From an uncultured Bacilli bacterium (GTDB lineage: Bacteria > Bacillota_I > Bacilli_A > RFN20 > CAG-449), in contig CANQEO010000006.1 of assembly GCA_947595215.1 (NCBI GenBank), positions 1 to 63,326 on the forward strand: a stretch of 63,326 bases of DNA, in the 5' to 3' direction. This document shows, piece by piece, positions 20,872 to 60,485 of the stretch; positions within the stretch are counted from its first letter, which is position 1, and the number at the start of each line of letters is the position of its first letter. The notes under the pieces were generated by a model. That model saw only the letters and a program-made list of their open reading frames with translations. It had not been told where the DNA came from and did not search any database. Both the position numbers and the translations under genes were made by a program.

Positions 20872-20947
20872 GCCGACATAGCTCAATTGGCAGAGCAATT
20901 GATTTGTAATCAATAGGTTGGCGGTTCGATTCCGTTTGTCGGCACCA
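20872..20947 (+). tRNA. tRNA-Thr (TGT), integration site
   Basis: GCCGACA pairs with TGTCGGC, CCA is encoded, loop TTTGTAA gives anticodon TGT. 76 bases. The 3' 45 bases form the left end of the 46-bp att repeat, so the gene was rebuilt by the integrated element. Confidence 0.95.
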
Positions 20948-20948
20948 T
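20903..20948 (+). repeat. attL, 46-bp direct repeat
   Basis: Starts TTTGTAATCAATAGG and ends GTCGGCACCAT; identical to 31952-31997. Overlaps the anticodon loop to the CCA end of tRNA-Thr. Confidence 0.95.
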
Positions 20949-20981
20949 TGATAGTAAAGCGATATAATCGCTGTTTTATGA

Positions 20982-21012
20982 GAGAGAGTTGTGAGGGCTC
21001 TCTCTTTTTTTT
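20982..21012 (+). terminator. Hairpin terminator inside left end
   Basis: GAGAGAG / CTCTCTC plus T-run following tRNA-Thr and a small GCGATATAATCGC hairpin. The same block is present in the second element beside tRNA-Lys. Confidence 0.7.
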
Positions 21013-21039
21013 GTTTAACCGACACGCGAACTTTCCTGG

Positions 21040-21917
21040 TCAGTGTGTCGCAAAATCGTTCAATGGTGAATAAATATTATTTTTTAGTTGATTGTCTTTG
21101 TGGTTAATATCCAGATAGATTTGTGTCATTTCAATAGATTTATGCCCTAATAAATCTTTAACAAGATATATATCTAAAGATTTGTTATAAATCGAAGTTG
21201 CATAATAATGTCTTAATTTATGAGGACTTAGAACATCAATATTACATGTTTTCTTTAAACGCTTGAAAAATTGTCTAACTGTATTTTGTGTCATTCTCTC
21301 GTTGTGTTCATCAATAAATAAATGGTTTTATTCATTACTTGTGCAACTAAATCTTTTAACGAATCAACTATGTAGATATTTCTTGATTCTCCGTTTTTGG
21401 TAAAGTCAAGATGGATAATACCATTTTCTAAATCGATATTGCTGTTTTTAATGTGACAGAGTTCATTAGTTCTTATACCAGTAGTTAAAATTAATAGAAA
21501 CATTAGCTTGTTTTTAGGATAAACATTAGAAGTTTCAAAATAATTAAGTATTTTGCGGATAGATTCATCTTCAATATTAGGAATAGGCTTCTTAATTGTT
21601 TTAAGAGGTTCGAACCTGAAGTTAATTTTATCAATATAGTCATTTTTAATTAAATGTCTAAGCATTATTTCTAAGTATTTAATTTCTTTATTAATAGTTC
21701 CAGGTTGAATTTTGTTTTTTCTGAATAGTACGTAATTATTAATAACTTTGGTAGTAATCTGGCAAGTAGTTTCAATTTTAATAGATTTTAAATAATTAAG
21801 AATTGGTTTAAAAACACATTTGTAAGCTGATAATGTTCCTGGTCGATTGTGAATAGTAATGTGATTTAAAAATAGCGAAAAAGAAAAGCGTAAAATATCT
21901 GATTTTTATGAAGAGCT
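21040..21917 (-). pseudogene. Tyrosine integrase, frameshifted and N-truncated
   Basis: Phage-type tyrosine recombinase. The frame continues upstream of the track ORF with no start codon: FLNHITIHNRPGTLSAYK (core-binding domain) reads directly into 21291-21665, which has the first catalytic Arg in TTGIRTNEL. The C-terminal ORF (21040-21294) holds HKLRHYYAT, LLGHKSIEMTQIYLDI with R-H-R-H-Y residues. The two parts are joined by a frameshift in an ATTTATTTATTG tract: the continuation FIDEHNERMTQNTVRQFF is in the other frame. The first ~15 codons are also gone. The element should therefore be unable to excise on its own unless helped. Confidence 0.85.
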
Positions 21918-21945
21918 AGATTTTAACGATGATTTACCATTTTAA
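21865..21945 (+). pseudogene. SSB C-terminal fragment
   Basis: A short in-frame stretch ends in SDFYEELDFNDDLPF followed by TAA. The acidic DDLPF tip is the protein-docking tail of single-stranded DNA-binding proteins. A TGA at 21862 and the integrase frame on the other strand cut it off, so everything upstream of the tail is lost. Marks a deletion junction between the integrase and an ssb gene. Confidence 0.7.
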
Positions 21946-21996
21946 CAAATTTAACAAAAAAACAATTTTGTAAAACAAGTAGAAAGGAAAAAGAAA

Positions 21997-22287
21997 ATGA
22001 AAAGAAAAAGAATAAAGTATAGCTATAACGAACGAAAAGCATATCACGATGGTGTTATGCAACGCTTCTTACATAGTTGTAGTGGTTTGGGTTTTAATAA
22101 AACGGAAGAGCGTTTAAGTAGAGAACCAAAAGTACAATATTCGGATGGATACACTACGTTTACAAGTGATATTCAACGCGGGTTTGTTCAATCCGAAGAC
22201 TATGTGAGTAAACAAAGTTTGGCATTTCAACGTGGATTCAAAGCGGCAAAATCTGCTTATGAAAAATCAAGAAATATTAAATTTTGA
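21997..22287 (+). CDS. Small basic protein of the element
   Basis: 96 residues, preceded by AGAAAGGA. Very basic N-terminus (KRKRIKYSYNERKAYHDGVMQRFLH) and a C-terminal helix (RGFKAAKSAYEKSRNIKF). No family recognised. Directly follows the SSB tail, the place where filamentous phages keep small DNA-binding or regulatory genes. The last codons overlap the next ORF's track start. A 21-bp stretch near its end recurs at 27362 in another element gene. Confidence 0.55.
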   Translation: MKRKRIKYSYNERKAYHDGVMQRFLHSCSGLGFNKTEERLSREPKVQYSDGYTTFTSDIQRGFVQSEDYVSKQSLAFQRGFKAAKSAYEKSRNIKF

Positions 22288-22295
22288 TAAAGATT

Positions 22296-22727
22296 ATGAG
22301 TAATAAGAAAAATCGTAAACGCTTAACGGGTTGGGCATGGACAAAGAAATATCCACACGAAAATCATCCTGCTACATATCATCGTAAAGGCAGTAATGAA
22401 ATCGAATATATTACTTTTACACATTCTAAAGAAGTGGATTTTGGTAAAAAAGGAAAGGTTCATACTATTCCATTGTCGGATAATATTAGTCCTTTAGAGC
22501 GAGAAAAAAATAAAAGACATGGAAAAATGCACGGAGAGAATCGTTCCTATGTATATCCAAAAGTTTATGATGGAAAACGTTCGGCTTTAGGAAAAGAAAC
22601 TGATGAGTTTAATCCAGTAGATTCCGATAAGGAATATATCAAAAAGATGTTTGAAGTTTTTCCTCGTGAGCAAGTCCCACTTACGGGTGGTAAAGGAAAA
22701 TATCGAAAGAAAAGGTCTAAACAATAA
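22296..22727 (+). CDS. Basic protein of the element
   Basis: 143 residues from the ATG at 22296; the track start at 22284 is a TTG overlapping the previous gene. Rich in Lys, Arg and His (KKNRKRLTGWAWTKKYPHENHPATYHRKG, ending GKYRKKRSKQ), with no membrane segment. Contains an ordered-looking core (NEIEYITFTHSKEVDFGKKGKVHTIPLSDNI). Probably nucleic-acid binding. No family recognised; adjacent genes suggest a replication/packaging module. Confidence 0.55.
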   Translation: MSNKKNRKRLTGWAWTKKYPHENHPATYHRKGSNEIEYITFTHSKEVDFGKKGKVHTIPLSDNISPLEREKNKRHGKMHGENRSYVYPKVYDGKRSALGKETDEFNPVDSDKEYIKKMFEVFPREQVPLTGGKGKYRKKRSKQ

Positions 22728-22738
22728 ATGCAAAAAAA

Positions 22739-22826
22739 AGAAAGTGCCACGAGCAATTAAGCCTCTTTCCGTGGGGGCTACAAGGACGAAAGCGGTAAAC
22801 CGCTAACACCGAGCCAAACACTTTCT
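22739..22826 (+). ncRNA. Structured non-coding element (multi-branched)
   Basis: AGAAAGTG and CACTTTCT close an 88-base region that contains CCACG/CGTGG and AGCGG-TAAA-CCGCT hairpins plus GGCT/AGCC. It lies in a 166-base gap between the basic protein and the first secreted protein. Higher in GC than its surroundings. Could be an RNA, or a single-stranded-DNA signal (origin or packaging). Type is uncertain. Confidence 0.5.
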
Positions 22827-22893
22827 GTACTTATTGTACTTAAAACTTCTAATAGAAGTCAATAAATTTTAAAAAAAGAAAGGAAAAAATAAA

Positions 22894-23547
22894 ATGAAAA
22901 GAAAGACAAAAAATACAATAATTACATTAGGCGCAGTAGTAATTGCGTTCGGTTTGTCAGGAGCAGGAAGCGCTCTTTTAACAAATGGCTTTAAAGATTT
23001 TAAAATGTTTGGAATCGATCAAGTAATCGATAATTCACGAATAGCGGTTACTTCAAAAGGTAGTAAAGGAACATCGTGGGTTTCTACTTATGTTTACTTT
23101 ACTCATCCTGAATTAGAAGAAGAAAAACAAGTTAAGACTTGGCCTGGCATGATGGCTAAAGAATTGGTTGATGAAGTTGATTATGTTACTTATCAGGGAA
23201 ATAACGATTACACTATCGAATTAACTCATTTAATGCCTTTAAAGTACACTAATTTTGAAAAGTTCTTCAAAGATGGCGGAACATGTGGCGTGGTATTGTC
23301 CTATGAAACCGAAAGTGGTCGTATTCAAAGTGCGGATTATATGATAACCGAAAGCGGAAATCATTATTTACCACTTCCAACAGAAAATGAAGAAGAAATT
23401 AAAGCTACAAAAATTGAGAAGTTTACTCATTATGGTTTTGTAAGTAATTCAAAAACTAGTGATCAAAAAAGCGATGAAGAAAAAGAATCATCGACTAAAG
23501 ATACTTCTTCACAAGCTTCAAGTGAGGTAAGTAGCGATGACGAATAG
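22894..23547 (+). CDS. Anchored extracytoplasmic protein 1 of element
   Basis: 217 residues. N-terminal TM/signal (ITLGAVVIAFGLSGAGSALL, residues 9-30), a folded middle with WPGMMAKELVDEVDYVTYQGNNDY, and a Ser/Asp/Glu-rich low-complexity C-terminus (STKDTSSQASSEVSSDDE). AAAGGAAAAA precedes the ATG. Overlaps the next gene by 11 bases. No family recognised. Membrane topology resembles a virion or surface structural protein. Confidence 0.55.
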   Translation: MKRKTKNTIITLGAVVIAFGLSGAGSALLTNGFKDFKMFGIDQVIDNSRIAVTSKGSKGTSWVSTYVYFTHPELEEEKQVKTWPGMMAKELVDEVDYVTYQGNNDYTIELTHLMPLKYTNFEKFFKDGGTCGVVLSYETESGRIQSADYMITESGNHYLPLPTENEEEIKATKIEKFTHYGFVSNSKTSDQKSDEEKESSTKDTSSQASSEVSSDDE

Positions 23548-24571
23548 TACTAAGTGTGTATTAACGATAGTAGCGTTATTAGGTGTAGCTTTAGGCGCTG
23601 TTGGAGTAATTAATCGGATTTTGCCTGGTGAGAAGACTATAGATAAGACATCAATTAATTCAACGACTAGTAATTCGAGTGAAACATCATCAGACAGTGT
23701 TAGCGATGAATCTACTTCTTCTGATGACGAAGAAGGAAAAGAAATTGAAAACACTACCTTTAAGTATTTTTTGCAACAATCAACTTCAGAAAGCGCTGAT
23801 GATATTAACTATGAATTGGAATTAAATCAATATAAAGAGACTGAATGGGTCTATTTTGAGAATTATACTATTGATTTTGGACGCGCTTATCGTGTAAAAA
23901 TTGAAAAACATATAACATATATTAATCAATCAGAAGATGTAGAAACTACTTATTCAAATGATTCATTTGAATGGGGTAATACTGGAACTGGTTCTTTCTT
24001 TTATTGGACTGGTTCAGAATCAAAATCAATTCAAAATCATATTAAAGCATTTAAAGGCGGACTTTATTTTGTTAATTTAGCTGAAGATTTAGTTGAAAGT
24101 GTAATTAGTCGTTACTACTTAGAGGAATCAAATGCTAGTGATCCATCTAGTGAAGTTTTAAAAACTACCGAGATGTTAAATACTTGTTCATTTGATAATG
24201 ATATTTCTCTTTGGTCTCAAACTTTTGATAATTGGGTTTTCTGTTGTCATTATAGTCCTATAAATAGAGAGGTTGGTTATTATCGCATTAAAATAGTAAA
24301 TACAACTTATTATTTAAATAAATCCGAAGAATCTGAAATTACCTATAATGATAATAATTTTGTCGAAAATACATGTCATTATTATAACTTTGTTTATTTA
24401 GTTGGTGTTGATGATAATACATTTAGTAATGGTTCATATAGACCAAGTGGTGATTCATCATCTCCATTGTTTATTGTTGCACAAGATTTAGGTAATGGAT
24501 TTTATATTTTAAATGTTGTTTATCATTTGGCTGTTGATCCATCTGTTGAACAACCATCATATGGTGGATAA
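23537..24571 (+). CDS. Anchored extracytoplasmic protein 2 of element
   Basis: 344 residues. TM anchor at 7-27 (VLTIVALLGVALGAVGVI), a Ser/Thr-rich stalk (STTSNSSETSSDSVSDESTSSDDEEGKE), then two similar beta-rich halves: YTIDFGRAYRVKIEKHITYINQSEDVETTYSND and REVGYYRIKIVNTTYYLNKSEESEITYNDN, so the ectodomain looks like a tandem duplication. No family recognised. Translationally coupled to its neighbours. Confidence 0.55.
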   Translation: MTNSTKCVLTIVALLGVALGAVGVINRILPGEKTIDKTSINSTTSNSSETSSDSVSDESTSSDDEEGKEIENTTFKYFLQQSTSESADDINYELELNQYKETEWVYFENYTIDFGRAYRVKIEKHITYINQSEDVETTYSNDSFEWGNTGTGSFFYWTGSESKSIQNHIKAFKGGLYFVNLAEDLVESVISRYYLEESNASDPSSEVLKTTEMLNTCSFDNDISLWSQTFDNWVFCCHYSPINREVGYYRIKIVNTTYYLNKSEESEITYNDNNFVENTCHYYNFVYLVGVDDNTFSNGSYRPSGDSSSPLFIVAQDLGNGFYILNVVYHLAVDPSVEQPSYGG

Positions 24572-24573
24572 TT

Positions 24574-25125
24574 ATGAAAACATGGGTTAAGGTATTGCTT
24601 ATTTCATTTTTAATATTTTCATCAATTTTTGCTATAGGATCTTTATTTTTGTTTCATAATGAATCAAAAAAAGATGTTTTAAGTGAAATTATTAAGGATG
24701 AAAATAAATTGATGATTGGAACATATATTGAATCTTCAACAAGTTTGAACGAAAAATCTATTAATTGTTTGCATATTTCAATTTATGAAAATGGTAAAAA
24801 ACAAAATGAAACGATTGATTTAGTAATGAATGATGAAAAATTAATCATTGATGAAAGATATTCAAATGTTGCGTTTTTTGATTTAACGGAGATGATGCAG
24901 GAATATACCGATGGCAAAGGTATAAATTCGTGGTCTAAGTTAAATGAAGGTAATTATATAAGCGTTCAAACAGAGTTTAATACATCGGATTTAAAAGCTG
25001 TCAGTGAAGAAGTGAAAATCACTGACAGCGGTCGTTATTTTATAAACGTTCCTACTGAAGATCATGGAAAAGTTCAGGTGGAGCATTCGTTTTTTTACAT
25101 TCAAAAATTAACAATGTGGGAGTGA
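24574..25125 (+). CDS. Anchored extracytoplasmic protein 3 of element
   Basis: 183 residues, starting two bases after the previous stop. TM anchor at 7-28 (LLISFLIFSSIFAIGSLFLF), then a short beta-rich ectodomain (IGTYIESSTSLNEKSINCLHISIYENGKK ... GRYFINVPTEDHGKVQVEHSFFYIQKL). Stop overlaps the ribosome site of the next gene. No family recognised. Confidence 0.55.
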   Translation: MKTWVKVLLISFLIFSSIFAIGSLFLFHNESKKDVLSEIIKDENKLMIGTYIESSTSLNEKSINCLHISIYENGKKQNETIDLVMNDEKLIIDERYSNVAFFDLTEMMQEYTDGKGINSWSKLNEGNYISVQTEFNTSDLKAVSEEVKITDSGRYFINVPTEDHGKVQVEHSFFYIQKLTMWE

Positions 25126-25130
25126 TGGTG

Positions 25131-26783
25131 ATGTTATCAAAATTATTGTTAGGATTATTATTAGTAAGTAATTCAGTTCCTTTAACTATTGATATTGATT
25201 ATAATCAAAAAGAATATCGTCAATATAATAAAGCAAATGAGGCTTCATCTGTTGATACTACTTTAAATATTGAAACAACAAATGTTGATTATGATTTGCG
25301 ATATATTTTTGGTGGAAAAGATTATAAAAATTTTGATTTGAATACTTTGCTTCCAGATGAGGATAAGGATCGTTATTCAACATCGAAATTTCTTTGTGCA
25401 AAGCCAGTAGGAAATAATTTGTATTTATATTTTTATCAAAGAATAAATCAAGGTCGTTATGAGCTTGTTGATTCTACTTTTACAATTTCTTTTTCAAAGG
25501 AAAAAGATTCAGAGACTGGTTTATATGTTGAAAATTATAAAATTTATAATGCTAGATTTATTAATCGTTATGGTTATCATGATAGTTTTTATAAGGTGGC
25601 CATCGATAATGTAGTAAATTTAAAAGAAGATTTTAGATGTAATATATTGAATTATCAATTAACGTTTAGTTTAGGTGTAAATCAAAATAGTTATAAAACA
25701 GATGTTTACGATGCTGAGCATGAAGCTATATTTTCAGCGAATGATAATCAAGATTATATGCTTGATTATTTTAGAAGTGATTATGTAACTATTACTGATG
25801 GAGATGTTAAGTTACTTTTAACCAGAGCTGATATAAAATATATTCCACCAGTTAATTTAGGAACATATGGATTAACAAATAGTGATTGGATGGAAGATTT
25901 TTATTACTTTTTTTCAACGGATCGTAATTTAGTAAATTTAGAAGAGGTGCAATATGATTATACTTTGACATCTTATACTGAGCTTCATGATAATGGTCGT
26001 TATACGTCTAAAGATTATCTTAATTGTACTTATACAACGTTTGTTGGAACGATGAATGATATAAGTGGTTATAATTCAACATCAGGAAAACCGATAACAG
26101 ACAAACCAATGTGGCTAGAAGAAGATTCGTTAGCTGATGAATTACGAATAAATAATAGAATTGTGAAAGGCAAACATATCAACGAAGTAAGTCGTCCTTA
26201 TTTCTTTTTTTGGAATAAAGATAATGCTTATCATTTGGAAAACATTCAAAATTGTTTAGATACGAGTAATTTAGTAGGTGATGAAGATAAAGGTTTTTTA
26301 GATTTTATTCAAGCGGTTCAAGCAGAACGAGTTGATAATTATAAAGATAAGTTTCAGTGGGCATTTCGAGTCGGAAGTTTTATTCGTTCTGTAGAATGCA
26401 AATTTATAAACGATGATTGGAGTTGGTTACTTGGTCAAACTGCGCGATCATATACTTATTGTCATGAAGTAAAAAATGCATTGATTGTTAGATTGCGGTT
26501 TAAAGTTGGAATGAAAGAGTATGAAATGAATGCTTTAGATGTTCCAAAAGATACATCTAGCGCGTATATACAAGATGTTCCATATACAACGCTTGGTGAT
26601 GATGTAATTGATTTTATTTTTGATTTTTTGGAGAGTTTTACAAACGGATTCGATATATTACTGCAGATATTAATAATTATCTTTTTAGCGATTGTTTTAT
26701 TAATCTTATTAAGATTAATATTAGGAATTTTTGAATTTTTATCTGAATTTTTATCGAGTAAAAAAAGGAAAAAAAGGAGTTAA
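25131..26783 (+). CDS. Large secreted protein with C-terminal TM (minor-coat-like)
   Basis: 550 residues from the ATG at 25131; GGGAG eight bases upstream supports this start over the track GTG. Signal peptide (KLLLGLLLVSNSVPLT), a long extracytoplasmic region with many Tyr/Asp/Asn, one strong TM near residues 505-535 (ILLQILIIIFLAIVLLILLRLIL) and a basic stop-transfer tail KKRKKRS. Signal plus single C-terminal TM plus basic tail is the layout of filamentous-phage adsorption proteins (pIII), though no sequence match is visible. Also compatible with any type-I surface protein. Confidence 0.55.
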   Translation: MLSKLLLGLLLVSNSVPLTIDIDYNQKEYRQYNKANEASSVDTTLNIETTNVDYDLRYIFGGKDYKNFDLNTLLPDEDKDRYSTSKFLCAKPVGNNLYLYFYQRINQGRYELVDSTFTISFSKEKDSETGLYVENYKIYNARFINRYGYHDSFYKVAIDNVVNLKEDFRCNILNYQLTFSLGVNQNSYKTDVYDAEHEAIFSANDNQDYMLDYFRSDYVTITDGDVKLLLTRADIKYIPPVNLGTYGLTNSDWMEDFYYFFSTDRNLVNLEEVQYDYTLTSYTELHDNGRYTSKDYLNCTYTTFVGTMNDISGYNSTSGKPITDKPMWLEEDSLADELRINNRIVKGKHINEVSRPYFFFWNKDNAYHLENIQNCLDTSNLVGDEDKGFLDFIQAVQAERVDNYKDKFQWAFRVGSFIRSVECKFINDDWSWLLGQTARSYTYCHEVKNALIVRLRFKVGMKEYEMNALDVPKDTSSAYIQDVPYTTLGDDVIDFIFDFLESFTNGFDILLQILIIIFLAIVLLILLRLILGIFEFLSEFLSSKKRKKRS

Positions 26784-26788
26784 GAGAA

Positions 26789-28003
26789 ATGAAAACTAAA
26801 AAAATATTAAGTGTTGGAATATTATTTATATTGTTAACTGGAATTGTCGGTTTTGGTGTTCATTCTTTAACTAAGGTTTCAGAAGAAGAAAATACTGATA
26901 TAGTTGAACGATTGTTAAATTATGCCGAAGTTAAGCCTAATTTATCTTATGAGATGTATCAAAGTGATGTACCTAGTGCAGATTATTTTTATAAGTATGA
27001 AAATATTTATTATAAAAAATTAAGTTTAAGTTTTAGTGGTCAAATAGCTTCTTCTTTATTACTTAAAGTTAATGAATATGCAAAAATAGATAAATTAGGG
27101 ATAATGTTTGCTTATAAGGATGATTTAAATGAGAAAAATTTATCAAACTCATTTTTATTGAATGAGAAAATTATAAGTAGTGAAAGAACTATTGATAAAA
27201 TAGGTAATAAATTAAATATTGAATTTGATTCCCTTTGGATAGGTGCTAATGATTATTTATTAACAGATTTAGATCGCGAATTTGTTTATTGTAGTTATTT
27301 TATGAGTGGAAATAAATATTATTTTGGCGAAGAAGTTACATCTTCTTTAAGAGCGATTGCGAAATCTGCTTATGAAAAATCAGTTTTAAATAAAGAACCA
27401 TTGCAAATTTATAAATTTATTTCAAATTATCATCGTGATTCTTGTTTAGATGAAATAACTCAATTAAATACTAAGTATCAAATGTCAGTTGTATTTTCTG
27501 AAAGTGAGCAAAGTAATTCAATATATCATGATGAAAAAAACGGATATGCTAATATTGCTATAAGAGGAGTGGGTCAAATATCTACGGATCTTTATAATAA
27601 AATTTCTAAAACTCATGCGATTGAGAAATTTGGAGTTGCGATTGTTAAATATGAAGATTTATTAAATTATATAATGATGAAGCGAGATACAATAAAATCG
27701 ATGTTGTATCAAGATGAAAGATTGTTGTATTTAGAAAATTCTTTATCTGAAGTAGTTAAATCTAATGATTTTTCGACAGGTTTTATTAATTGGTATGGAA
27801 CAATTATTGATATAGAAAATACTGAAAAGGCAATAAAGCAAGATTATTATGCTATAAGCTATATGCTTATTGATGGTAAATATGAATTTTTAAATACTGC
27901 AGAATTTTCATTGCCGGATATTGCTTTTGTTTATTTAAAAACTGCTAAAGATACTGATAAAAATTATAATGTTTGGAAATATTTAGCATCATTTGCTGAG
28001 TAA
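26789..28003 (+). CDS. Anchored protein with duplicated domain
   Basis: 404 residues. Signal/TM at 5-25 (ILSVGILFILLTGIVGFGV). The ectodomain consists of two related copies: SLSFSGQIASSLLLKVNEYAKIDKLGIMFAYKDDL and IAIRGVGQISTDLYNKISKTHAIEKFGVAIVKYEDL, each followed by a similar strand-rich half. Similar repeats occur in secreted proteins of related gut Bacilli, but I cannot name the domain. Follows the previous gene by 5 bases. Contains the second copy of a 21-bp repeat (27362-27382). Confidence 0.55.
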   Translation: MKTKKILSVGILFILLTGIVGFGVHSLTKVSEEENTDIVERLLNYAEVKPNLSYEMYQSDVPSADYFYKYENIYYKKLSLSFSGQIASSLLLKVNEYAKIDKLGIMFAYKDDLNEKNLSNSFLLNEKIISSERTIDKIGNKLNIEFDSLWIGANDYLLTDLDREFVYCSYFMSGNKYYFGEEVTSSLRAIAKSAYEKSVLNKEPLQIYKFISNYHRDSCLDEITQLNTKYQMSVVFSESEQSNSIYHDEKNGYANIAIRGVGQISTDLYNKISKTHAIEKFGVAIVKYEDLLNYIMMKRDTIKSMLYQDERLLYLENSLSEVVKSNDFSTGFINWYGTIIDIENTEKAIKQDYYAISYMLIDGKYEFLNTAEFSLPDIAFVYLKTAKDTDKNYNVWKYLASFAE

Positions 28004-28019
28004 AAGTAGGTAGTTCTTT

Positions 28020-28307
28020 ATGGCAAGAAAAATAAAAATAAGTAGATATATAGGTAAAATTGGTTGGTGTAATGGTCATACTTTTACGAGCATTGAACGA
28101 GAAAATGGAACTTTTAACTATAATAAAATTAATCAAATTAAAAACGGAAATATATATCCAATACCAAAAAAAGACCTTACGTTACCTAGATTTAGTGGAA
28201 TTGATAAAAGAGTTATTAAAGATATTAGTATTGATGATATTAAATATAAAGGACAAAATACAATAAAAGGTCGACATAAACATTATATTAATAAATATAT
28301 GAAATAA
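28020..28307 (+). CDS. Small basic protein of the element
   Basis: 95 residues, strongly basic (ARKIKISRYIGKIGWCNGH ... KGRHKHYINKYMK), no TM. GTAGGTAG precedes the ATG. No family recognised. A pair of hairpins follows it. Confidence 0.5.
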   Translation: MARKIKISRYIGKIGWCNGHTFTSIERENGTFNYNKINQIKNGNIYPIPKKDLTLPRFSGIDKRVIKDISIDDIKYKGQNTIKGRHKHYINKYMK

Positions 28308-28311
28308 AAAA

Positions 28312-28349
28312 CCTAGACAAAGGGTCTAGGTAACGTGCCAAAGATTGGC
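28312..28349 (+). other. Two adjacent hairpins
   Basis: CCTAGAC/GTCTAGG and GCCAA/TTGGC stems lie in the 97-base gap before the next gene. No T-run, so not a clear terminator; could be a processing or DNA-structure signal. Confidence 0.4.
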
Positions 28350-28404
28350 TACTATTATTATACACAATAATTTTAAAAAATAAACATAAAAGTGAGGCGA
28401 TTTT

Positions 28405-28764
28405 ATGAAATTGTTAAAAAAGATCCTTTATTTAATATTGATATTGTTTGTTGTAGTAGTGGTTTGTTATTTAATTTATTCATTTACAAAATTTAATGAT
28501 AAGGGAATTGATTCAACTTATTATCTTGATAAGTATTATTTAAACGAAGATCGAACGGTCTTCGTTTATTTTGGTGATTTTGAAAAAACTAGTTTTATTG
28601 TAGTTAATGGTGATAGATCTGATGTAAATATCGATTATGAAAAAGGTTTATTTATTTTAAAATCGGAATCAGAAGAATATTATTTCGGCCAAGTAACAAG
28701 CGATATTTTATATAGTAGTAATTTTAATGATTATTTTTATAATCAAGATTTTTTTAGTCGTTGA
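28405..28764 (+). CDS. Small membrane-anchored protein
   Basis: 119 residues: TM at 7-29 (ILYLILILFVVVVVCYLIY) and a small beta-rich domain (EDRTVFVYFGDFEKTSFIVVNGD). GTGAGGCG site upstream. Ends just before the ATPase gene and may be a partner of it. No family recognised. Confidence 0.55.
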   Translation: MKLLKKILYLILILFVVVVVCYLIYSFTKFNDKGIDSTYYLDKYYLNEDRTVFVYFGDFEKTSFIVVNGDRSDVNIDYEKGLFILKSESEEYYFGQVTSDILYSSNFNDYFYNQDFFSR

Positions 28765-28786
28765 CTTACTAAAGGCGGTGGATAAA

Positions 28787-30958
28787 ATGAAATTAAAAAA
28801 TGTAATAACGAGGATAAATTTTAAAATTTTATTATGTATAACAATAACAATAGCGATATTGTTGTTATCATTGGTTTTTGAACGTTCTTTTTATCGTATT
28901 TGGGAATCGTTAAAAGATTTTGGACTTAGTATTTATTATTATTTTTGTGAACTTTTTAAAATTGATCGAGTGACAGAACCAACGATTAATTTTATTGGGC
29001 AGTATGATTTAGTGAATGATCCATTTAGTTTCATTTCTTTTGAATTTTTAAAAGCTTATTTAAGCTTAAGTTTTTCAAGCATTATTAATTTGCAATCATT
29101 AAAAGTTTTTTTAGCTTCCAGCGGAAATTTGTTATCTGATTTTTTGAAACTAATGTTAATTGTTTTACCATTGTTAATTATTTTTGTTTTTCTTTACAAA
29201 AATTATTTTAGTAGCAATGAAAAAGCGATTAATTCTGATTCACGGCCATTGAAGATTTATAAGTTCGTTAAATTTAAAATAGTAGATCAAATTGTTTATT
29301 TCTTTGAAGATTTTATGGTTTATTTAAAGGATCATCGTTATTTTTATAAAATCTGGATTGCAATTTTATTGTTTTATTTTAACTTTTATTCAGTTTTAAT
29401 TGAATTAATCGCTTTTTATTTATATTTTGTTTTTTCTTTCGACTTCGGCGGTGTTTTTATGCAATTCTATAAATTGATTCTTGATTTGTTACCACTATTT
29501 AGATTTGTTCCGTTACCTATATGGATTATTATAGGTGTTTTGTTCTTTAATCGATTTCGGAAAAAAATTGCTTATAAAATATTGATGCATCATGAGATGA
29601 TGAATCGAGGTTTAATTAATGAGCTAGGATTGTCATCGTTGATATGTTCACCTATGGGTAAAGGCAAGACTACTTTATTGACGGATATTGGACTTTCTCA
29701 ATCAATAATGTTTCGTGATGTCGCATTTCAAAAGCTTTTAGAAAATGATTTGAAATTTCCTAATTTTACTTTTTCTGTTTTTGAAAAAGAAATAAAGCGA
29801 GCTATAAGCGATCATGAAATCTATAATTTGGCTACTTGCGAAAAGTGGATCAAATTGAAAGAATCAGAGTTTAAAAAAAGCGGAAATTTGTTTGATTACG
29901 ATTATTTAAGATATGGTCTTTATTATTACGACGGGTGCAAAGAAATTTCTATTTTTGAAATGCTTAATAATTATGTTAAATTGTTTTTTATTTATGCGAT
30001 GGAATCTAGCTTGATGATTACTAATTACTCTGTTCGTGAAGATAATGTATTAGATGACATCGGATTTTTTCCTCGATGGCATAGTGATTTTTTTAGTAGT
30101 AATCCAGAATATATGGAAGCTTATTCCAGGCACTCTCATATTCTAGATTTTGATATGCTCCGTTTAGGTAAAACAGTTGTTGAAAATAATAAATATCGTG
30201 ACGCATTTGAATTTGGTGTAGTATTAATCACCGAAGGCGGAAAAGAACGAGGGAATATGCTCGATAATCGAGGAGTTAAAAAAGATTCGGAAAATGCGAA
30301 TCAGTTAAACGATTTGTTTAACTCTTGGTTAAAGATGGTCCGACATAGTGCAACGGTCGATAATTATCCGTTTGTGAAAGTTATCTTTGATGAACAAAGG
30401 CCAGAATCATTAGGGGCTGACGCACGTGAAGTTTGCGAAAAGATCATTTTTATCGAAGAGAAAAAAGCAACGCAGACTCCATTGATGTTGTTTGGGCTGG
30501 AGACAATGATTTATGATTTTTTTAATGAACGTTTAAGTAATATTTATTCTAATTATCGTTATTATCGCGGTGATAACACTTTGTTTATGTATTTATTAAA
30601 AAGCCTGTGGTCTAAATATTCACATTATTATGAACGTTTAAAAAATGTTTTTAGCTATCACAAATTGATTTTGTCTAGTCAAAAAGGAACTCTGGACGGA
30701 ACTGTTGGATCTAGTAAGTATTATATTAGTCATAAAAAGATCTATTCTAAGAGATTTGCAACTAATGCTTTTAATGATTATTTTATGCAAAAATCGATAT
30801 TGTCGGAAATCGGATTAAATGACATTCCAGAGTTTGAAAGTGAATCTGCAACGCTTGAAGAACTAGCAAGTGAAAATTCGTATTTTATTCGTGAACTGAT
30901 AAGAATCAGAAGTGAGCAAAATAAAAATATGAATAATCAAGAAAAAGATGAAATATGA
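28787..30958 (+). CDS. Membrane P-loop ATPase, Zot/pI-like candidate
   Basis: 723 residues from the ATG at 28787 (AAAGGCGGTGG upstream; the track start is earlier and inside the previous gene). The N-terminal ~270 residues hold about five TM segments (near 14-32, 110-135, 190-215, 220-245, 250-270). The cytosolic part opens with Walker A CSPMGKGKTTLL near residue 285; a hhhhDE Walker-B-like FVKVIFDEQRPESLGAD follows ~240 residues later. Filamentous phages have exactly one such membrane ATPase (pI/Zot) for extrusion; conjugation coupling proteins (VirD4/TraG) are the alternative, but no relaxase or T4SS gene is present. Long gap between Walker A and B is unusual. Confidence 0.65.
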   Translation: MKLKNVITRINFKILLCITITIAILLLSLVFERSFYRIWESLKDFGLSIYYYFCELFKIDRVTEPTINFIGQYDLVNDPFSFISFEFLKAYLSLSFSSIINLQSLKVFLASSGNLLSDFLKLMLIVLPLLIIFVFLYKNYFSSNEKAINSDSRPLKIYKFVKFKIVDQIVYFFEDFMVYLKDHRYFYKIWIAILLFYFNFYSVLIELIAFYLYFVFSFDFGGVFMQFYKLILDLLPLFRFVPLPIWIIIGVLFFNRFRKKIAYKILMHHEMMNRGLINELGLSSLICSPMGKGKTTLLTDIGLSQSIMFRDVAFQKLLENDLKFPNFTFSVFEKEIKRAISDHEIYNLATCEKWIKLKESEFKKSGNLFDYDYLRYGLYYYDGCKEISIFEMLNNYVKLFFIYAMESSLMITNYSVREDNVLDDIGFFPRWHSDFFSSNPEYMEAYSRHSHILDFDMLRLGKTVVENNKYRDAFEFGVVLITEGGKERGNMLDNRGVKKDSENANQLNDLFNSWLKMVRHSATVDNYPFVKVIFDEQRPESLGADAREVCEKIIFIEEKKATQTPLMLFGLETMIYDFFNERLSNIYSNYRYYRGDNTLFMYLLKSLWSKYSHYYERLKNVFSYHKLILSSQKGTLDGTVGSSKYYISHKKIYSKRFATNAFNDYFMQKSILSEIGLNDIPEFESESATLEELASENSYFIRELIRIRSEQNKNMNNQEKDEI

Positions 30959-30988
30959 AATGTCTTTTTTCGAGCTTAAACCGCACAC

Positions 30989-31071
30989 AACTCACAGCAG
31001 TCGCTGTCAAGCGGCAAGTAAAACGATACGCCGTTAGGGCAACGCTTGACAGCTTAAGACTGCTGTGAGTT
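30989..31071. repeat. Nested perfect palindrome (candidate ssDNA origin/packaging hairpin)
   Basis: Outer arms AACTCACAGCAGTC / GACTGCTGTGAGTT (14 bp, perfect) enclose inner arms GCTGTCAAGCG / CGCTTGACAGC (11 bp, perfect); only TTAA interrupts one side. A 29-base apical loop remains. Confidence 0.85.
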
Positions 31072-31246
31072 ATAATACAAAAGGCGCGAAAAGACAAAAG
31101 TAAAAAAGAAAAGAAGAACCTAAAAAGATGTAAGTCGAGTAAAAGCTCCATGTGGTTATGGGGAGGAGTGAGGTCCTTAGGTAGACTTAAAAAAAGAGCC
31201 ATTAGCCAAAAATACTTGACTAATAGCAAAAGATTTTTTAAAATAA

Positions 31247-31294
31247 AATCACTTCTTTAAGGTTATTCTAATTGAATTCTTAAAGAAAGTGATT
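31247..31294. repeat. Inverted repeat
   Basis: AATCACTTCTTTAAG and CTTAAAGAAAGTGATT pair over 15 bases with one bulge. Confidence 0.75.
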
Positions 31295-31302
31295 ATTACT
31301 TT

Positions 31303-31341
31303 AGAGCCGTTGATGGTGAGTGTGAGAACGGCTCTTTTTTT
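31303..31341 (+). terminator. Terminator hairpin of ATPase transcript
   Basis: AGAGCCGTT / AACGGCTCT followed by seven T. The second element has AGAGCCATT / AATGGCTCT at the same place, a compensatory change. Confidence 0.8.
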
Positions 31342-31363
31342 AATCTTTTTCTTTTTCATCTTA

Positions 31364-31476
31364 GGTTCTCCTTTCAATAAGGGTAAAAACAAACAAAATT
31401 AGATTAGGTTGTCAATATATCTGTTTGTATTTACGGCCTCATCTAATTTTGTATAATCCTAAAAAAAAGGAGAACC
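31364..31476. repeat. Long two-part inverted repeat (possible origin)
   Basis: GGTTCTCCTTT (31364) pairs with AAAGGAGAACC (31466); inside, AAAATTAGAT (31395) pairs with ATCTAATTTT (31441). A partly degraded version is present in the second element. Confidence 0.7.
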
Positions 31477-31560
31477 GAAAAAGGAAAAGATGGAACAGTC
31501 TAAGGGCAATAAAATGAAATGTGGAGCGTATGAAATACAAATTAATATTAATCGAAAATA

Positions 31561-31603
31561 AAAAAATAAGGGCAGAAGCGGTTTAGCGGCCCTTATTTTT
31601 TTT
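31561..31603 (+). terminator. Hairpin at the cargo-slot edge
   Basis: AAAAAATAAGGGC and GCCCTTATTTTTTTT close a 15-base loop. Terminator-like on both strands; conserved in the second element (59176-59217). Confidence 0.7.
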
Positions 31604-31682
31604 CGATTAGCGAAAAAATTTTTTTAAATATCCGTCAACTGAATATATCGTATGTTAATTTTTTTTGAGGTGGTAAAAATGT

Positions 31683-31958
31683 ATGTTTACTGGCAGAAAT
31701 ATCCGTAGTAAGAACGAGATATTAGTTTATATGATAATCGAATTACTTGTAGAAGGCTTTTTAGATCCACAGGAATTAAGAAATCAGTTTAATATAACAT
31801 CGTTGACACTATATAGATATATGTCGCTTATTAAGAATGTAATATTTGATTTCGATTATCACTATATTGATGTTTACTATGATCGTAAAGTTAAGATTTA
31901 TAGATGTAAATTTCTCACAAACTATCACTTCATGGATAGCGAAAAAAACGTTTTGTAA
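31683..31958 (+). CDS. Small winged-HTH protein
   Basis: 91 residues. GAGGTGG ten bases upstream supports the ATG at 31683; an ATG at 31679 opens a ten-codon dead end. The segment ILVYMIIELLVEGFLDPQELRNQFNITSLTLYRYMSLIKN is a DeoR/HTH_11-type DNA-binding domain; the rest forms strands like a small wing. Its TAA stop is inside the attR core. Likely regulator of element excision or replication. The second element retains only its first few codons. Confidence 0.65.
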   Translation: MFTGRNIRSKNEILVYMIIELLVEGFLDPQELRNQFNITSLTLYRYMSLIKNVIFDFDYHYIDVYYDRKVKIYRCKFLTNYHFMDSEKNVL

Positions 31959-31997
31959 TCAATAGGTTGGCGGTTCGATTCCGTTTGTCGGCACCAT
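31952..31997 (+). repeat. attR, 46-bp direct repeat
   Basis: Perfect copy of 20903-20948 without the 5' part of the tRNA. Confidence 0.95.
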
Positions 31998-58518: not shown

Positions 58519-58699
58519 GTCGATTTTTAAATAGTTGTTTTTGTCACAAATGTAAAATTTTTGAGTAAGCGGTTTGGTAGTCAGTCAAATAGCTTACTTG
58601 TAATCCGTCCTATATGACACCTTTTAGCGCAAAATCTGGAATTGCTCCCACGTGGCACTAATTGATTTCACTGCCTATTATTGCTGTCAATCAATTGTT
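58519..58699. other. Gap behind lipoprotein gene
   Basis: No gene, RNA or repeat recognised between the lipoprotein and the Z1 fragment. Confidence 0.5.
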
Positions 58700-59074
58700 T
58701 TTTATGGGATGATTACATGCCTAATGAGCTTTCGCAGTTGTTCGAAGAGCAAACCGTGCGACGCTTTCCGCGATACCTACGACGATCTTCTGCTCACGAA
58801 ACCCGATTTCCTTCCATTCGGCGAACTGTACGAATTTATGCAGTATGATGACGGCGGAAACATTTTGACGATCAATTCCGACACTCTGCTCGAAGAAAAT
58901 ACGCATTACGAGAACGGAATCAATATCATCGGCGACGGGAATAGTTTGGGGCGCGGCGTTACTTTCCCTTGCTTGCAGACGATCTACTATTGCCGTGTCG
59001 TTAAAAGTCCGCAGGAGGATACAATGTGGCAGCACGCGAGAATGTTCGGCTATGACTGCAATCCGAAGCTGATG
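58700..59074 (+). pseudogene. Z1-domain protein fragment
   Basis: Within the 177-residue ORF, roughly residues 37-142 (FRDTYDDLLLTKPDFLPFGELYEF, IIGDGNSLGRGVTFPCLQTIYYCR, DTMWQHARMFGYDCNPKLMRIFLP) match the helicase-like C-terminal part of Z1 proteins, which occur in restriction/defence-type operons with MORC/HSP90 ATPases. N-terminal ATPase region is absent and the C-terminal end is replaced by element sequence from 59075. Composition is near 50% GC, far above the window. A broken, foreign defence gene. Confidence 0.7.
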
Positions 59075-59175
59075 CGGATATTTCTGCCAGTAACATACAT
59101 TTCTACCACCTCAAAAAAAATTAACATACGATATATTCAGTTGACGGATATTTTAAAAATTTTTTTCGCTATTCG

Positions 59176-59217
59176 AAAAAAATAAGGGCCGCTAAACCGC
59201 TTCTGCCCTTATTTTTT
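59176..59217. terminator. Conserved hairpin of element 2
   Basis: AATAAGGGC / GCCCTTATTTTTT, the counterpart of 31561-31603. Confidence 0.65.
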
Positions 59218-59234
59218 ATTTTCGATAAAATATA

Positions 59235-59949
59235 TTAATCATTAATTTCGCCTTTTTTACAACGTTTTAACTTTTTTTCTAATGTTTCACTTAAATTCTT
59301 TAAATCATTAGGATATAAACTAATTAAAGTTAATTTATCTTCTTTATATATTTCCATTTTATATGCTTTTTGTCTGTCGTATATTGGATTATTTTCAACA
59401 CCCCAATATTCAATATAAACATCACCCAAATTTTCATAATTTGGAAGTTTCCAATCTGGATAAATTGATTTCTCATATTTTGGATTATTAGGCAAATATT
59501 CCTTTTCATACTTATGTTGAATTTTATGATTATATAAATAATCATCAATTCTTGCTTCTTCATCACTTTTCACAATATGTCCATCTTCACTTATTATTTT
59601 TTTATTAAAATACTTACTTTCTAATAATTCAGATGAAGCACACCTTTTTATTCTTATTAAAATTTCTTTTTCATTATATTTATAATAACAATCTCTACAA
59701 AAATGATAACCATTGTCAGTTTCATTTCCACAAATAATACAAGTATTAGGATTATTTATATAAATTATTTTTTCTTTTTCTTGACTACATTTACAATTTG
59801 AATGTATATCAATGCCATTCACCGCATTTTTCACATTGAACTATTTTACCATTTTTAAACTCTTGAGCATGTTCACGACAAAGCTTATCTTTTCTTTCAT
59901 TTCCATATAATGATGATGTCGGCTTACCACATATTGGACAATTACTCAT
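59235..59949 (-). pseudogene. Zinc-ribbon / PD-(D/E)XK-like nuclease, apparently frameshifted
   Basis: Two overlapping ORFs read as one protein. N-terminal part (from ATG 59949, AAAAAGGGG upstream): MSNCPICGKPTSSLYGNE ... CEKCGEWH; second part: CKCSQEKEK, TCIICGNETDNGYHFCRDCYYKY, then VKSDEEARIDDYLYNHKIQHKYEKEYL, IYPDWKLPNY, DVYIEYWG, YKMEIYK. The last block has the D...E.x.K spacing of restriction-endonuclease-fold nucleases linked to Zn fingers. The frames part around GGCATTGATATAC (59810-59830), so it is either broken or two genes. It is cargo between conserved element flanks. Confidence 0.65.
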
Positions 59950-60223
59950 TTTAAAATTACCCCTTTTTAAATTCCTTTTTTCAAATTCTAACAAAGCCGA
60001 ATTTCTATGTCAACTTTATTGCAACATATATGCTCTTTCATATCTTTTTTATTGCCCTTAGACTATTCCATTTTTTCCTTTTTCGGTTTTCCTTTTTTAG
60101 GATTATACAAAATTCGATTCGTTCATCAATACAAACGGATATATTGACTACCTTCATCTAACTTTGTTTATTTTATATCTTATTGAAAGTAGAGCTTAAG
60201 ATGAAAAAGAAAAAGATTAAAAA

Positions 60224-60256
60224 AGAGCCATTGCTACCTTCAATCTAAATGGCTCT
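60224..60256 (-). terminator. Covarying terminator hairpin of element 2
   Basis: AGAGCCATT / AATGGCTCT with T-run; matches 31303-31341 with paired base changes. Confidence 0.7.
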
Positions 60257-60409
60257 AAAGACAATCAATTAAAAATAATATTTATTCACCGTTAAATGAT
60301 TTCGTGACCCACTGACCAGGAAAGTTCGCGTGTCACTTAACAAAAAAAGAGAGTCGCCCTCACAACTCTCTTTTCTTCAAAACAGCGATTATATCGCCGA
60401 TTTAACCAA

Positions 60410-60485
<76 letters not shown>

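What the first reader, a model, noticed from the sequence alone, without database searches (positions are those of the whole stretch)
59222..60075. Cargo slot between conserved element blocks: nuclease in copy 2, empty in copy 1
In copy 1 the sequence after TCTAAGGGCAATAAAA runs only ~50 bp to ATCGAAAATAAAAAATAAGGG. In copy 2 the same two flanks enclose ~800 bp with a zinc-ribbon plus PD-(D/E)XK-like nuclease. That is how phage-borne anti-phage 'morons' are organised, so this may be a defence hotspot of a filamentous-phage-like family.
Basis: partly seen in the sequence, partly recalled or inferred. Interest (0 to 1): 0.75.

Follow-up and report, generated by a model that had tools for sequence, protein, structure and literature searches.

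The report
Nuclease cargo slot in integrated phage-like elements
A small integrating, phage-like DNA element of gut Bacilli and Clostridia has a spot near its end that is either empty or holds a DNA-cutting enzyme resembling candidate anti-phage proteins, which suggests that these elements carry immunity genes for their hosts.

Summary
The same two flanks enclose 36 bp in copy 1 (a complete 11-kb element, 20,903-31,997, between 46-bp tRNA repeats) and 820 bp in copy 2, which holds a zinc-ribbon/PD-(D/E)XK-type gene with its own promoter-like site. Two corrections: copy 2 is only a remnant (both ends, no interior), and its nuclease frame is broken once, although an intact homologue (94% identical over the nuclease part) sits in a matching remnant of a sister genome. 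The pattern recurs. An intact element (G173) carries the nuclease in the homologous slot. Among 60 relatives chosen only by the element's ATPase, 16 have the nuclease within 10 kb. Near-identical Clostridia elements (L284/L285 against L286) are filled (871 bp) or empty (121 bp) at one site inside the element. The nuclease does not track the ATPase phylogenetically and is under purifying selection (dN/dS 0.06). It is therefore accessory cargo. It resembles PADLOC defence candidates PDC-S69/PDC-S68 and HEAT_CxxC_PDDEXK, so anti-phage action is likely but untested. Close relatives hold this nuclease or nothing; other cargo appears in only two distant relatives. 'Filamentous phage' is half-supported: a G2P-type Rep occurs in relatives, but the ATPase matches no Zot/pI model.

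The parts
20903..20948 (+). left attachment repeat of copy 1 (3' part of tRNA-Thr gene 20872-20944), 46 bp identical to 31952-31997
20949..31951 (+). copy 1: integrated element between the attachment repeats (about 11 kb)
21040..21665 (-). tyrosine integrase of copy 1, in at least two short frames (84 and 124 aa), apparently broken
28727..30958 (+). membrane-anchored P-loop ATPase of the element (743 aa), used as anchor for finding relatives
31287..31514 (+). conserved block left of the slot, copy 1 (82% identical to 60047-60270)
31515..31550 (+). empty slot of copy 1 (36 bp)
31541..31705 (+). conserved block right of the slot, copy 1, with hairpin terminator (loop GCGGTTTAGCG)
31683..31958 (+). 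91-aa protein at the right end of the element; 60% identical homologue directly after the nuclease in L089/L139
31952..31997 (+). right attachment repeat of copy 1
60257..60478 (-). left end of copy 2, at tRNA-Lys gene 60413-60485 (-)
60047..60270 (-). conserved block left of the slot, copy 2
59227..60046 (-). filled slot of copy 2 (820 bp cargo interval)
59985..60013 (-). promoter-like site TTGACA-17-TAGAAT with TG before the second hexamer, directly upstream of the cargo gene (consensus match only)
59809..59949 (-). cargo gene, first frame: N-terminal zinc ribbons (ATG at 59949; longer TTG frame from 59994)
59235..59834 (-). cargo gene, second frame: zinc ribbon plus PD-(D/E)XK-type domain (199 aa); frame broken relative to the intact homologue in G004
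59177..59217 (-). hairpin terminator after the cargo gene, shared with copy 1
59075..59239 (-). conserved block right of the slot, copy 2; homology ends at 59075
58652..59185 (+). frame holding a fragment of a Z1-domain helicase gene (PADLOC Helicase_II, Pfam Z1) that abuts the truncated right end of copy 2

Best explanation
The interval is an accessory-gene slot next to the right end of a family of 11-kb integrating, single-stranded-DNA-phage-like elements. Its recurrent occupant is a zinc-ribbon PD-(D/E)XK-type nuclease gene with its own promoter-like site, read into the element's right-end hairpin terminator, so it could be expressed while the rest of the element is silent. Shown by sequence: conserved flanks, filled and empty forms of the same element, nuclease inside element ends, exchange between elements, purifying selection, and survival of the gene where the rest of the element has decayed. 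Inferred: the nuclease cuts DNA of incoming phages or rival elements and so protects the lysogen (and the resident element), which is why it outlives the element.
For: Slot homology: G173 element (L089/L139) has ATPase, then two small genes, then nuclease, then a hairpin with the same loop, then the same 91-aa right-end protein (60% identical). Filled/empty pair 2: L284 and L286 are 93% identical over 4.9 kb, then 871 bp with the nuclease against 121 bp, then a shared 51-bp end; 25-27-bp direct repeats bound L284 and L285 with the nuclease inside. Recurrence: 16 of 60 ATPase-chosen Clostridia loci; 14 of these lie 0.2-4 kb downstream of the ATPase, 12 of them on the opposite strand. Conversely 10 of 23 nuclease loci with about 10 kb on both sides have the ATPase. 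Exchange: ATPase and nuclease distances are uncorrelated (Mantel r 0.14, 310 of 2000 permutations as high). Selection: dN/dS 0.057 (30 synonymous, 11 non-synonymous changes in 191 codons) between the G000 and G004 genes, which sit in separate remnants at tRNA-Lys and tRNA-Phe. Defence-like relatives: PDC-S69 E 5e-23, HEAT_CxxC_PDDEXK 2e-13, PDC-S68 C-terminus 1e-9.
Against: No activity data exist for this protein or, as far as the held library shows, for PDC-S69/PDC-S68. The PADLOC match covers only the C-terminal nuclease domain. The window's own copy is frameshifted, so it may be dead (or mis-assembled). About 44 of 60 sampled elements lack the nuclease, so the element does not need it. Homologues also occur away from any recognisable element.
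Confidence: 0.6

Rival explanations
1. The gene is a selfish free-standing homing-type endonuclease: it spreads by cutting the empty slot of related elements and being copied in by repair, with no benefit to host or element.
For: Precise filled/empty alleles in near-identical elements; intergenic position; one structural match is the homing endonuclease I-Bth0305I (prob 0.90, TM by target 0.62, but E 0.28).
Against: The nuclease sits in several unlike places: either orientation, after ATPase, Rep or recombinase, or next to HTH genes 7 kb upstream, so there is no single target. It carries its own promoter-like site and stays under purifying selection in remnants at two different tRNA genes. Multiple zinc ribbons and the match to defence candidates are not typical of it.
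Confidence: 0.12
2. The nuclease is a working part of the element's own cycle (replication, resolution or integration) and the 'empty' copies are defective.
For: Strong association with this ATPase family; a nuclease could process ssDNA intermediates.
Against: Most relatives lack it, including elements with the other core genes present; orientation and place vary; its phylogeny does not follow the ATPase; no ATPase lies near it in 13 of 23 well-flanked loci.
Confidence: 0.12
3. The slot is a general anti-phage hotspot with freely exchanged, varied cargo, as in P2/P4-type hotspots.
For: In sister elements the Rep-to-right-end interval holds a HigB-like (Gp49)/HTH pair in L240 and a DUF3990/HTH pair (PADLOC PDC-M42A) in L253, where 14 relatives are empty.
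Against: Among the closest relatives the slot holds this nuclease or nothing. Restriction-modification, Ppl and Tmn genes near other copies lie beyond the conserved right-end hairpin where that was located, so they are neighbours, not cargo.
Confidence: 0.2
4. Chance: a chromosomal nuclease gene next to a tRNA gene was overlapped by the element remnant.
For: Copy 2 is a remnant and the interval alone could be host DNA; the cargo is more AT-rich (24% GC) than the element (28.6%).
Against: The same gene lies between the same right-end sequence and element parts in G004 and G173, and inside direct-repeat-bounded elements L235, L264, L269, L284 and L285.
Confidence: 0.03

Closest known systems
Accessory ('moron') genes of Pf filamentous prophages (PMC7549136; KKP defence module PMC11341870)
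   Same: Small integrated phages with accessory genes between boundary core genes and the attachment site, including Dcm methylases, parDE toxin-antitoxin and an anti-phage kinase module.
   Different: Hosts are Bacilli and Clostridia; the ATPase has no Zot match; the recurrent cargo is a zinc-ribbon PD-(D/E)XK-type nuclease not named in what I read of those papers.
PADLOC candidate PDC-S69 (and PDC-S68, HEAT_CxxC_PDDEXK)
   Same: Homologous C-terminal nuclease domain (E 5e-23, 1e-9, 2e-13).
   Different: Only the C-terminal ~110 of 289 positions of PDC-S69 match; here the N-terminus is two or three zinc ribbons; PDC-S68 is a 1,200-aa protein. No function reported in the held library.
Inoviruses as defined by Roux et al. 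2019 (PMC6813254)
   Same: About 11 kb, integrates by tyrosine or DDE recombinases, P-loop ATPase with membrane anchor, secreted and membrane proteins, rolling-circle Rep (G2P type in relatives).
   Different: The ATPase has 3-4 or more N-terminal membrane segments by hydropathy and no Zot match; no clear 30-90-aa single-membrane-segment coat gene was seen in copy 1.
P2/P4-type defence hotspots (own knowledge: Rousset et al. 2022)
   Same: Cargo between conserved flanks of a small integrated element.
   Different: Here cargo variety is low: one nuclease family or nothing in close relatives.

Membership tests
Prophage moron / lysogenic-conversion gene | Present in some and absent from otherwise near-identical elements, at one site | tested here: met
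   copy 1 against copy 2; L284/L285 against L286
Prophage moron / lysogenic-conversion gene | Own promoter and terminator | tested here: inconclusive
   11-of-12 promoter match directly upstream (but as many matches in shuffles of the region) and a hairpin terminator; no expression data
Prophage moron / lysogenic-conversion gene | Changes the host phenotype (here phage resistance) | not testable with these tools
   needs plaque assays
Inovirus (Roux et al. 2019 criteria) | pI-like ATPase whose closest known domain is Zot, with one or two membrane segments | tested here: not met
   no Zot match in Pfam or PHROGs for 8 homologues; 3-4 or more N-terminal membrane segments by hydropathy; criterion read
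Inovirus (Roux et al. 2019 criteria) | 30-90-aa structural proteins with one membrane segment | tested here: inconclusive
   only a few short hydrophobic frames, mostly inside other genes, in copy 1
Inovirus (Roux et al. 2019 criteria) | Rolling-circle replication protein | tested here: met
   in relatives: REP_ORF2-G2P above cut-off, Rep_trans, Rep_OBD+helicase; none recognised in copy 1
PD-(D/E)XK nuclease | Conserved acidic and lysine core in an alpha/beta fold | tested here: met
   invariant E133, D167, E182, K199 in 11 homologues; matches to PADLOC PD-(D/E)XK models; structure search gives mainly PD-(D/E)XK nucleases near the top but no E below 0.015
PDC-S69 | Full-length match to the model | tested here: not met
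   only positions 175-283 of 289 align
Defence hotspot with variable cargo | Several unrelated defence genes between the same flanks | tested here: inconclusive
   nuclease or empty in close relatives; two other cargo types in sister elements
Independent insertion with its own ends | Terminal repeats or target duplication at the cassette edges | tested here: not met
   edge repeats of copy 2, G004 and L284 are short A/T-rich matches of 6-10 bp; inverted ones are at shuffle level, direct ones are reached in 37, 11 and 8 of 200 shuffles and are not the same sequence among the three cassettes

The most novel reading that the evidence does not exclude
A widespread, hardly described lineage of small integrating ssDNA-phage-like elements in gut Bacilli and Clostridia delivers a zinc-ribbon nuclease immunity gene that hosts keep after the element decays, so that decaying elements leave single-gene anti-phage systems at tRNA genes.
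Probability: 0.35. Interest if true: 0.75.

Novelty: new variant of a known kind. Interest (0 to 1): 0.6.

Why it matters
It gives a concrete, testable immunity candidate with intact homologues, natural filled and empty versions of the same element as matched controls, and a defined slot (between ATPase/Rep and right end) from which further cargo can be mined in gut Bacilli and Clostridia, where defence genes on filamentous-type prophages are little known. It also offers a clean case of a cargo gene outliving its vehicle.

Tried and rejected
Viral-contig search with the ATPase found no relative and with the nuclease only 8 weak ones; no nuclease homologue in 50,697 phage records and only distant, mostly C-terminal ones in 11 plasmid records. 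DNA-level search for the right flank in the family found only G004. The 91-aa right-end protein is close only in G173. The ATPase model was poor (pLDDT 53), so it was not searched for folds; its profile found nothing in the PDB. Restriction-modification, reverse-transcriptase, Ppl, PDC-S60 and Tmn genes downstream of other ATPase loci were first read as varied cargo and then set aside: a conserved ~60-bp hairpin at the right end precedes those genes in L245, L250, L251, L252, L256, L258 and L259; in L248, L254 and L260 that end was not located, so their status is open. That copy 2 is a mobile mini-element was rejected: no right attachment repeat is found for it or for the G004 remnant. Rfam found only tRNAs.

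Full report
1. Observation. TCTAAGGGCAATAAAA occurs at 31,499-31,514 (+) and 60,047-60,062 (-); the second flank occurs at 59,206-59,226 (-) and, with one extra A, from about 31,551 (+). They enclose 36 bp in copy 1 and 820 bp in copy 2. They belong to longer homologous blocks of 165-230 bp at 93% and 82% identity, so chance is excluded.

2. What the two copies are. Copy 1 is a complete integrated element of 11 kb between 46-bp repeats of a tRNA-Thr gene (20,903-20,948 and 31,952-31,997). It holds integrase pieces, signal-peptide or membrane proteins, and a 743-aa ATPase with hydrophobic N-terminal segments. Copy 2 is a remnant at a tRNA-Lys gene: left end (60,478-60,257) joined directly to the right-hand part (60,270-59,075) with about 10 kb of interior missing; no right attachment repeat was found, and the sequence passes at 59,075 into a GC-rich (50%) fragment of a Z1-domain helicase gene. 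The cargo gene of copy 2 is split by one frameshift near 59,810.

3. The cargo. The two frames encode CxxC zinc ribbons and a C-terminal domain with invariant E133, D167, E182 and K199 across 11 homologues (numbering of the G004 protein). PADLOC gives PDC-S69 (E 5e-23), HEAT_CxxC_PDDEXK (2e-13) and the C-terminus of PDC-S68 (1e-9), all over the C-terminal half. An AlphaFold2 model (pLDDT 82) finds Bax1, TnsA, McrC, I-Bth0305I and VRR-NUC among its matches, mostly PD-(D/E)XK nucleases, but with E of 0.015 or worse. The fold assignment is therefore likely, not proven. A promoter-like site (TTGACA-17-TAGAAT, 11 of 12) lies just upstream, although the region has no more such matches than its shuffles, and a hairpin terminator common to both copies lies just downstream.

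4. The same slot elsewhere. In G004, a same-genus genome (a Bacilli MAG, contig CANQAG010000021.1), a tRNA-Phe gene is followed by the element's left end, an unbroken nuclease gene (91% DNA identity; 94% protein identity over the nuclease part) and a piece of the right-end terminator, with the rest of the element gone. In G173 (L089/L139, an Erysipelotrichaceae MAG) an intact element has ATPase, two small genes, nuclease, a hairpin with the same loop but a different, still complementary stem, and the same 91-aa right-end protein.

5. How general. From a genome-wide scan, 51 loci hold a strong nuclease match; 14 of these also hold the ATPase, and 10 of the 23 with about 10 kb on both sides do. 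In the other direction, 60 Clostridia loci were taken by the ATPase alone: 16 hold the nuclease within 10 kb, 14 of them 0.2-4 kb downstream of the ATPase and 12 of those on the opposite strand. By inference, an ATPase in about 15% of genomes of 1.8 Mb would put one in well under 1% of random 20-kb windows. Direct repeats of 25-46 bp bound L235, L264, L269, L284 and L285 with the nuclease inside.

6. A second filled/empty pair. L284 and L285 (two genomes) and L286 (a third) are 92-93% identical over about 5 kb through the ATPase, Rep and DDE recombinase. L284 and L285 then have about 870 bp with the nuclease where L286 has 121 bp, followed by a shared ~50-bp end.

7. Accessory, exchanged, selected. 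Nuclease and ATPase distances across 22 elements are uncorrelated (Mantel r 0.14; 310 of 2000 permutations as high), apart from recent pairs. Between the G000 and G004 remnants the nuclease has 30 synonymous and 11 non-synonymous changes (dN/dS 0.057), and its N-terminal part 0.013. Since the two remnants lie at different tRNA genes and have lost nearly everything else, the gene appears to have been kept for its own sake (inference). The frameshift in G000 is then recent, or an assembly error in a 65%-complete MAG; I cannot tell which.

8. Is it a hotspot? Close relatives hold this nuclease or nothing. In a sister clade, 16 loci share a ~60-bp hairpin (GGCGTGTGCTTGTC ... GACAAGCACACGCC) that I take as the right end. 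It lies about 1.2 kb after the ATPase in 14, but further out in L240 and L253, where a Gp49/HigB-type plus HTH pair and a DUF3990 plus HTH pair (PADLOC PDC-M42A) occupy the interval. So other cargo exists, but it is rare. Restriction-modification, Ppl and Tmn genes near these loci lie outside that end where the end could be located; in L248, L254 and L260 it could not.

9. Is it a filamentous phage? Relatives encode rolling-circle Reps, one above the cut-off for REP_ORF2-G2P, others Rep_trans or Rep_OBD plus helicase. But the ATPase matches no Zot model in Pfam or PHROGs and shows 3-4 or more N-terminal membrane segments by hydropathy, which does not meet the published criterion (Zot closest, one or two segments; PMC6813254). 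It looks as if it works like an integrating ssDNA phage; membership in the inoviruses is not established.

10. Comparison. Accessory genes between boundary core genes and attachment sites, some of them defence-related, are known for Pf phages (PMC7549136; PMC11341870, abstract). The new points are the host range, the element family, the nuclease, and its survival in remnants. Limits: MAG data, some contig ends, no function test, and the ATPase-to-nuclease distance used as a proxy for the slot where element ends were not delimited.

Noticed in passing
window 58652-59185 (+): GC-rich (50%) fragment of a Z1-domain helicase gene (PADLOC Helicase_II, E 5e-36) abuts the truncated right end of copy 2: a second broken defence-type gene at the same spot.
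   Followed up: partly
window 21040-21990 (-): The tyrosine integrase of copy 1 appears in pieces (84 and 124 aa frames), so copy 1 may no longer excise by itself.
   Followed up: partly
L284, L285, L235, L268, L088 (elements with a DDE recombinase, cluster 20): These elements are flanked by direct repeats of 25-28 bp whose sequence differs from site to site; if they are target duplications they are unusually long for a DDE enzyme.
   Followed up: partly
L238, L240-L242, L245, L246, L249-L253, L256-L259, L274 (about 1.2 kb after the ATPase in most): A conserved ~60-bp strong hairpin (GGCGTGTGCTTGTC...CTTGTATCAAGACAAGCACACGCC) marks what seems to be the right end of a Clostridia clade of these elements; z-score -6.5 when folded. 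Its role (origin, packaging, folded attachment site) is unknown.
   Followed up: partly
window 31555-31605 and 59174-59223; L089 hairpin before the 91-aa gene: Right-end hairpins keep the loop AGCGGTTTAGCG while the stem changes on both sides (AAGGGC/GCCCTT against CACGGG/CCCGTG), which suggests selection on structure.
   Followed up: partly
Clostridia loci L245, L248, L250, L251, L252, L254, L256, L258, L259, L260: Beside these elements lie restriction-modification, DRT-type reverse transcriptase, Ppl, Tmn and PDC-S60 genes (outside the element where its end is known), so the elements may tend to insert next to defence islands.
   Followed up: partly
MT835493.1:31912-33861 (phage record, 57 kb): The only deposited phage record with the element's ATPase (42% identical, 88% covered) is an unannotated 57-kb human faecal phage sequence.
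   Followed up: no
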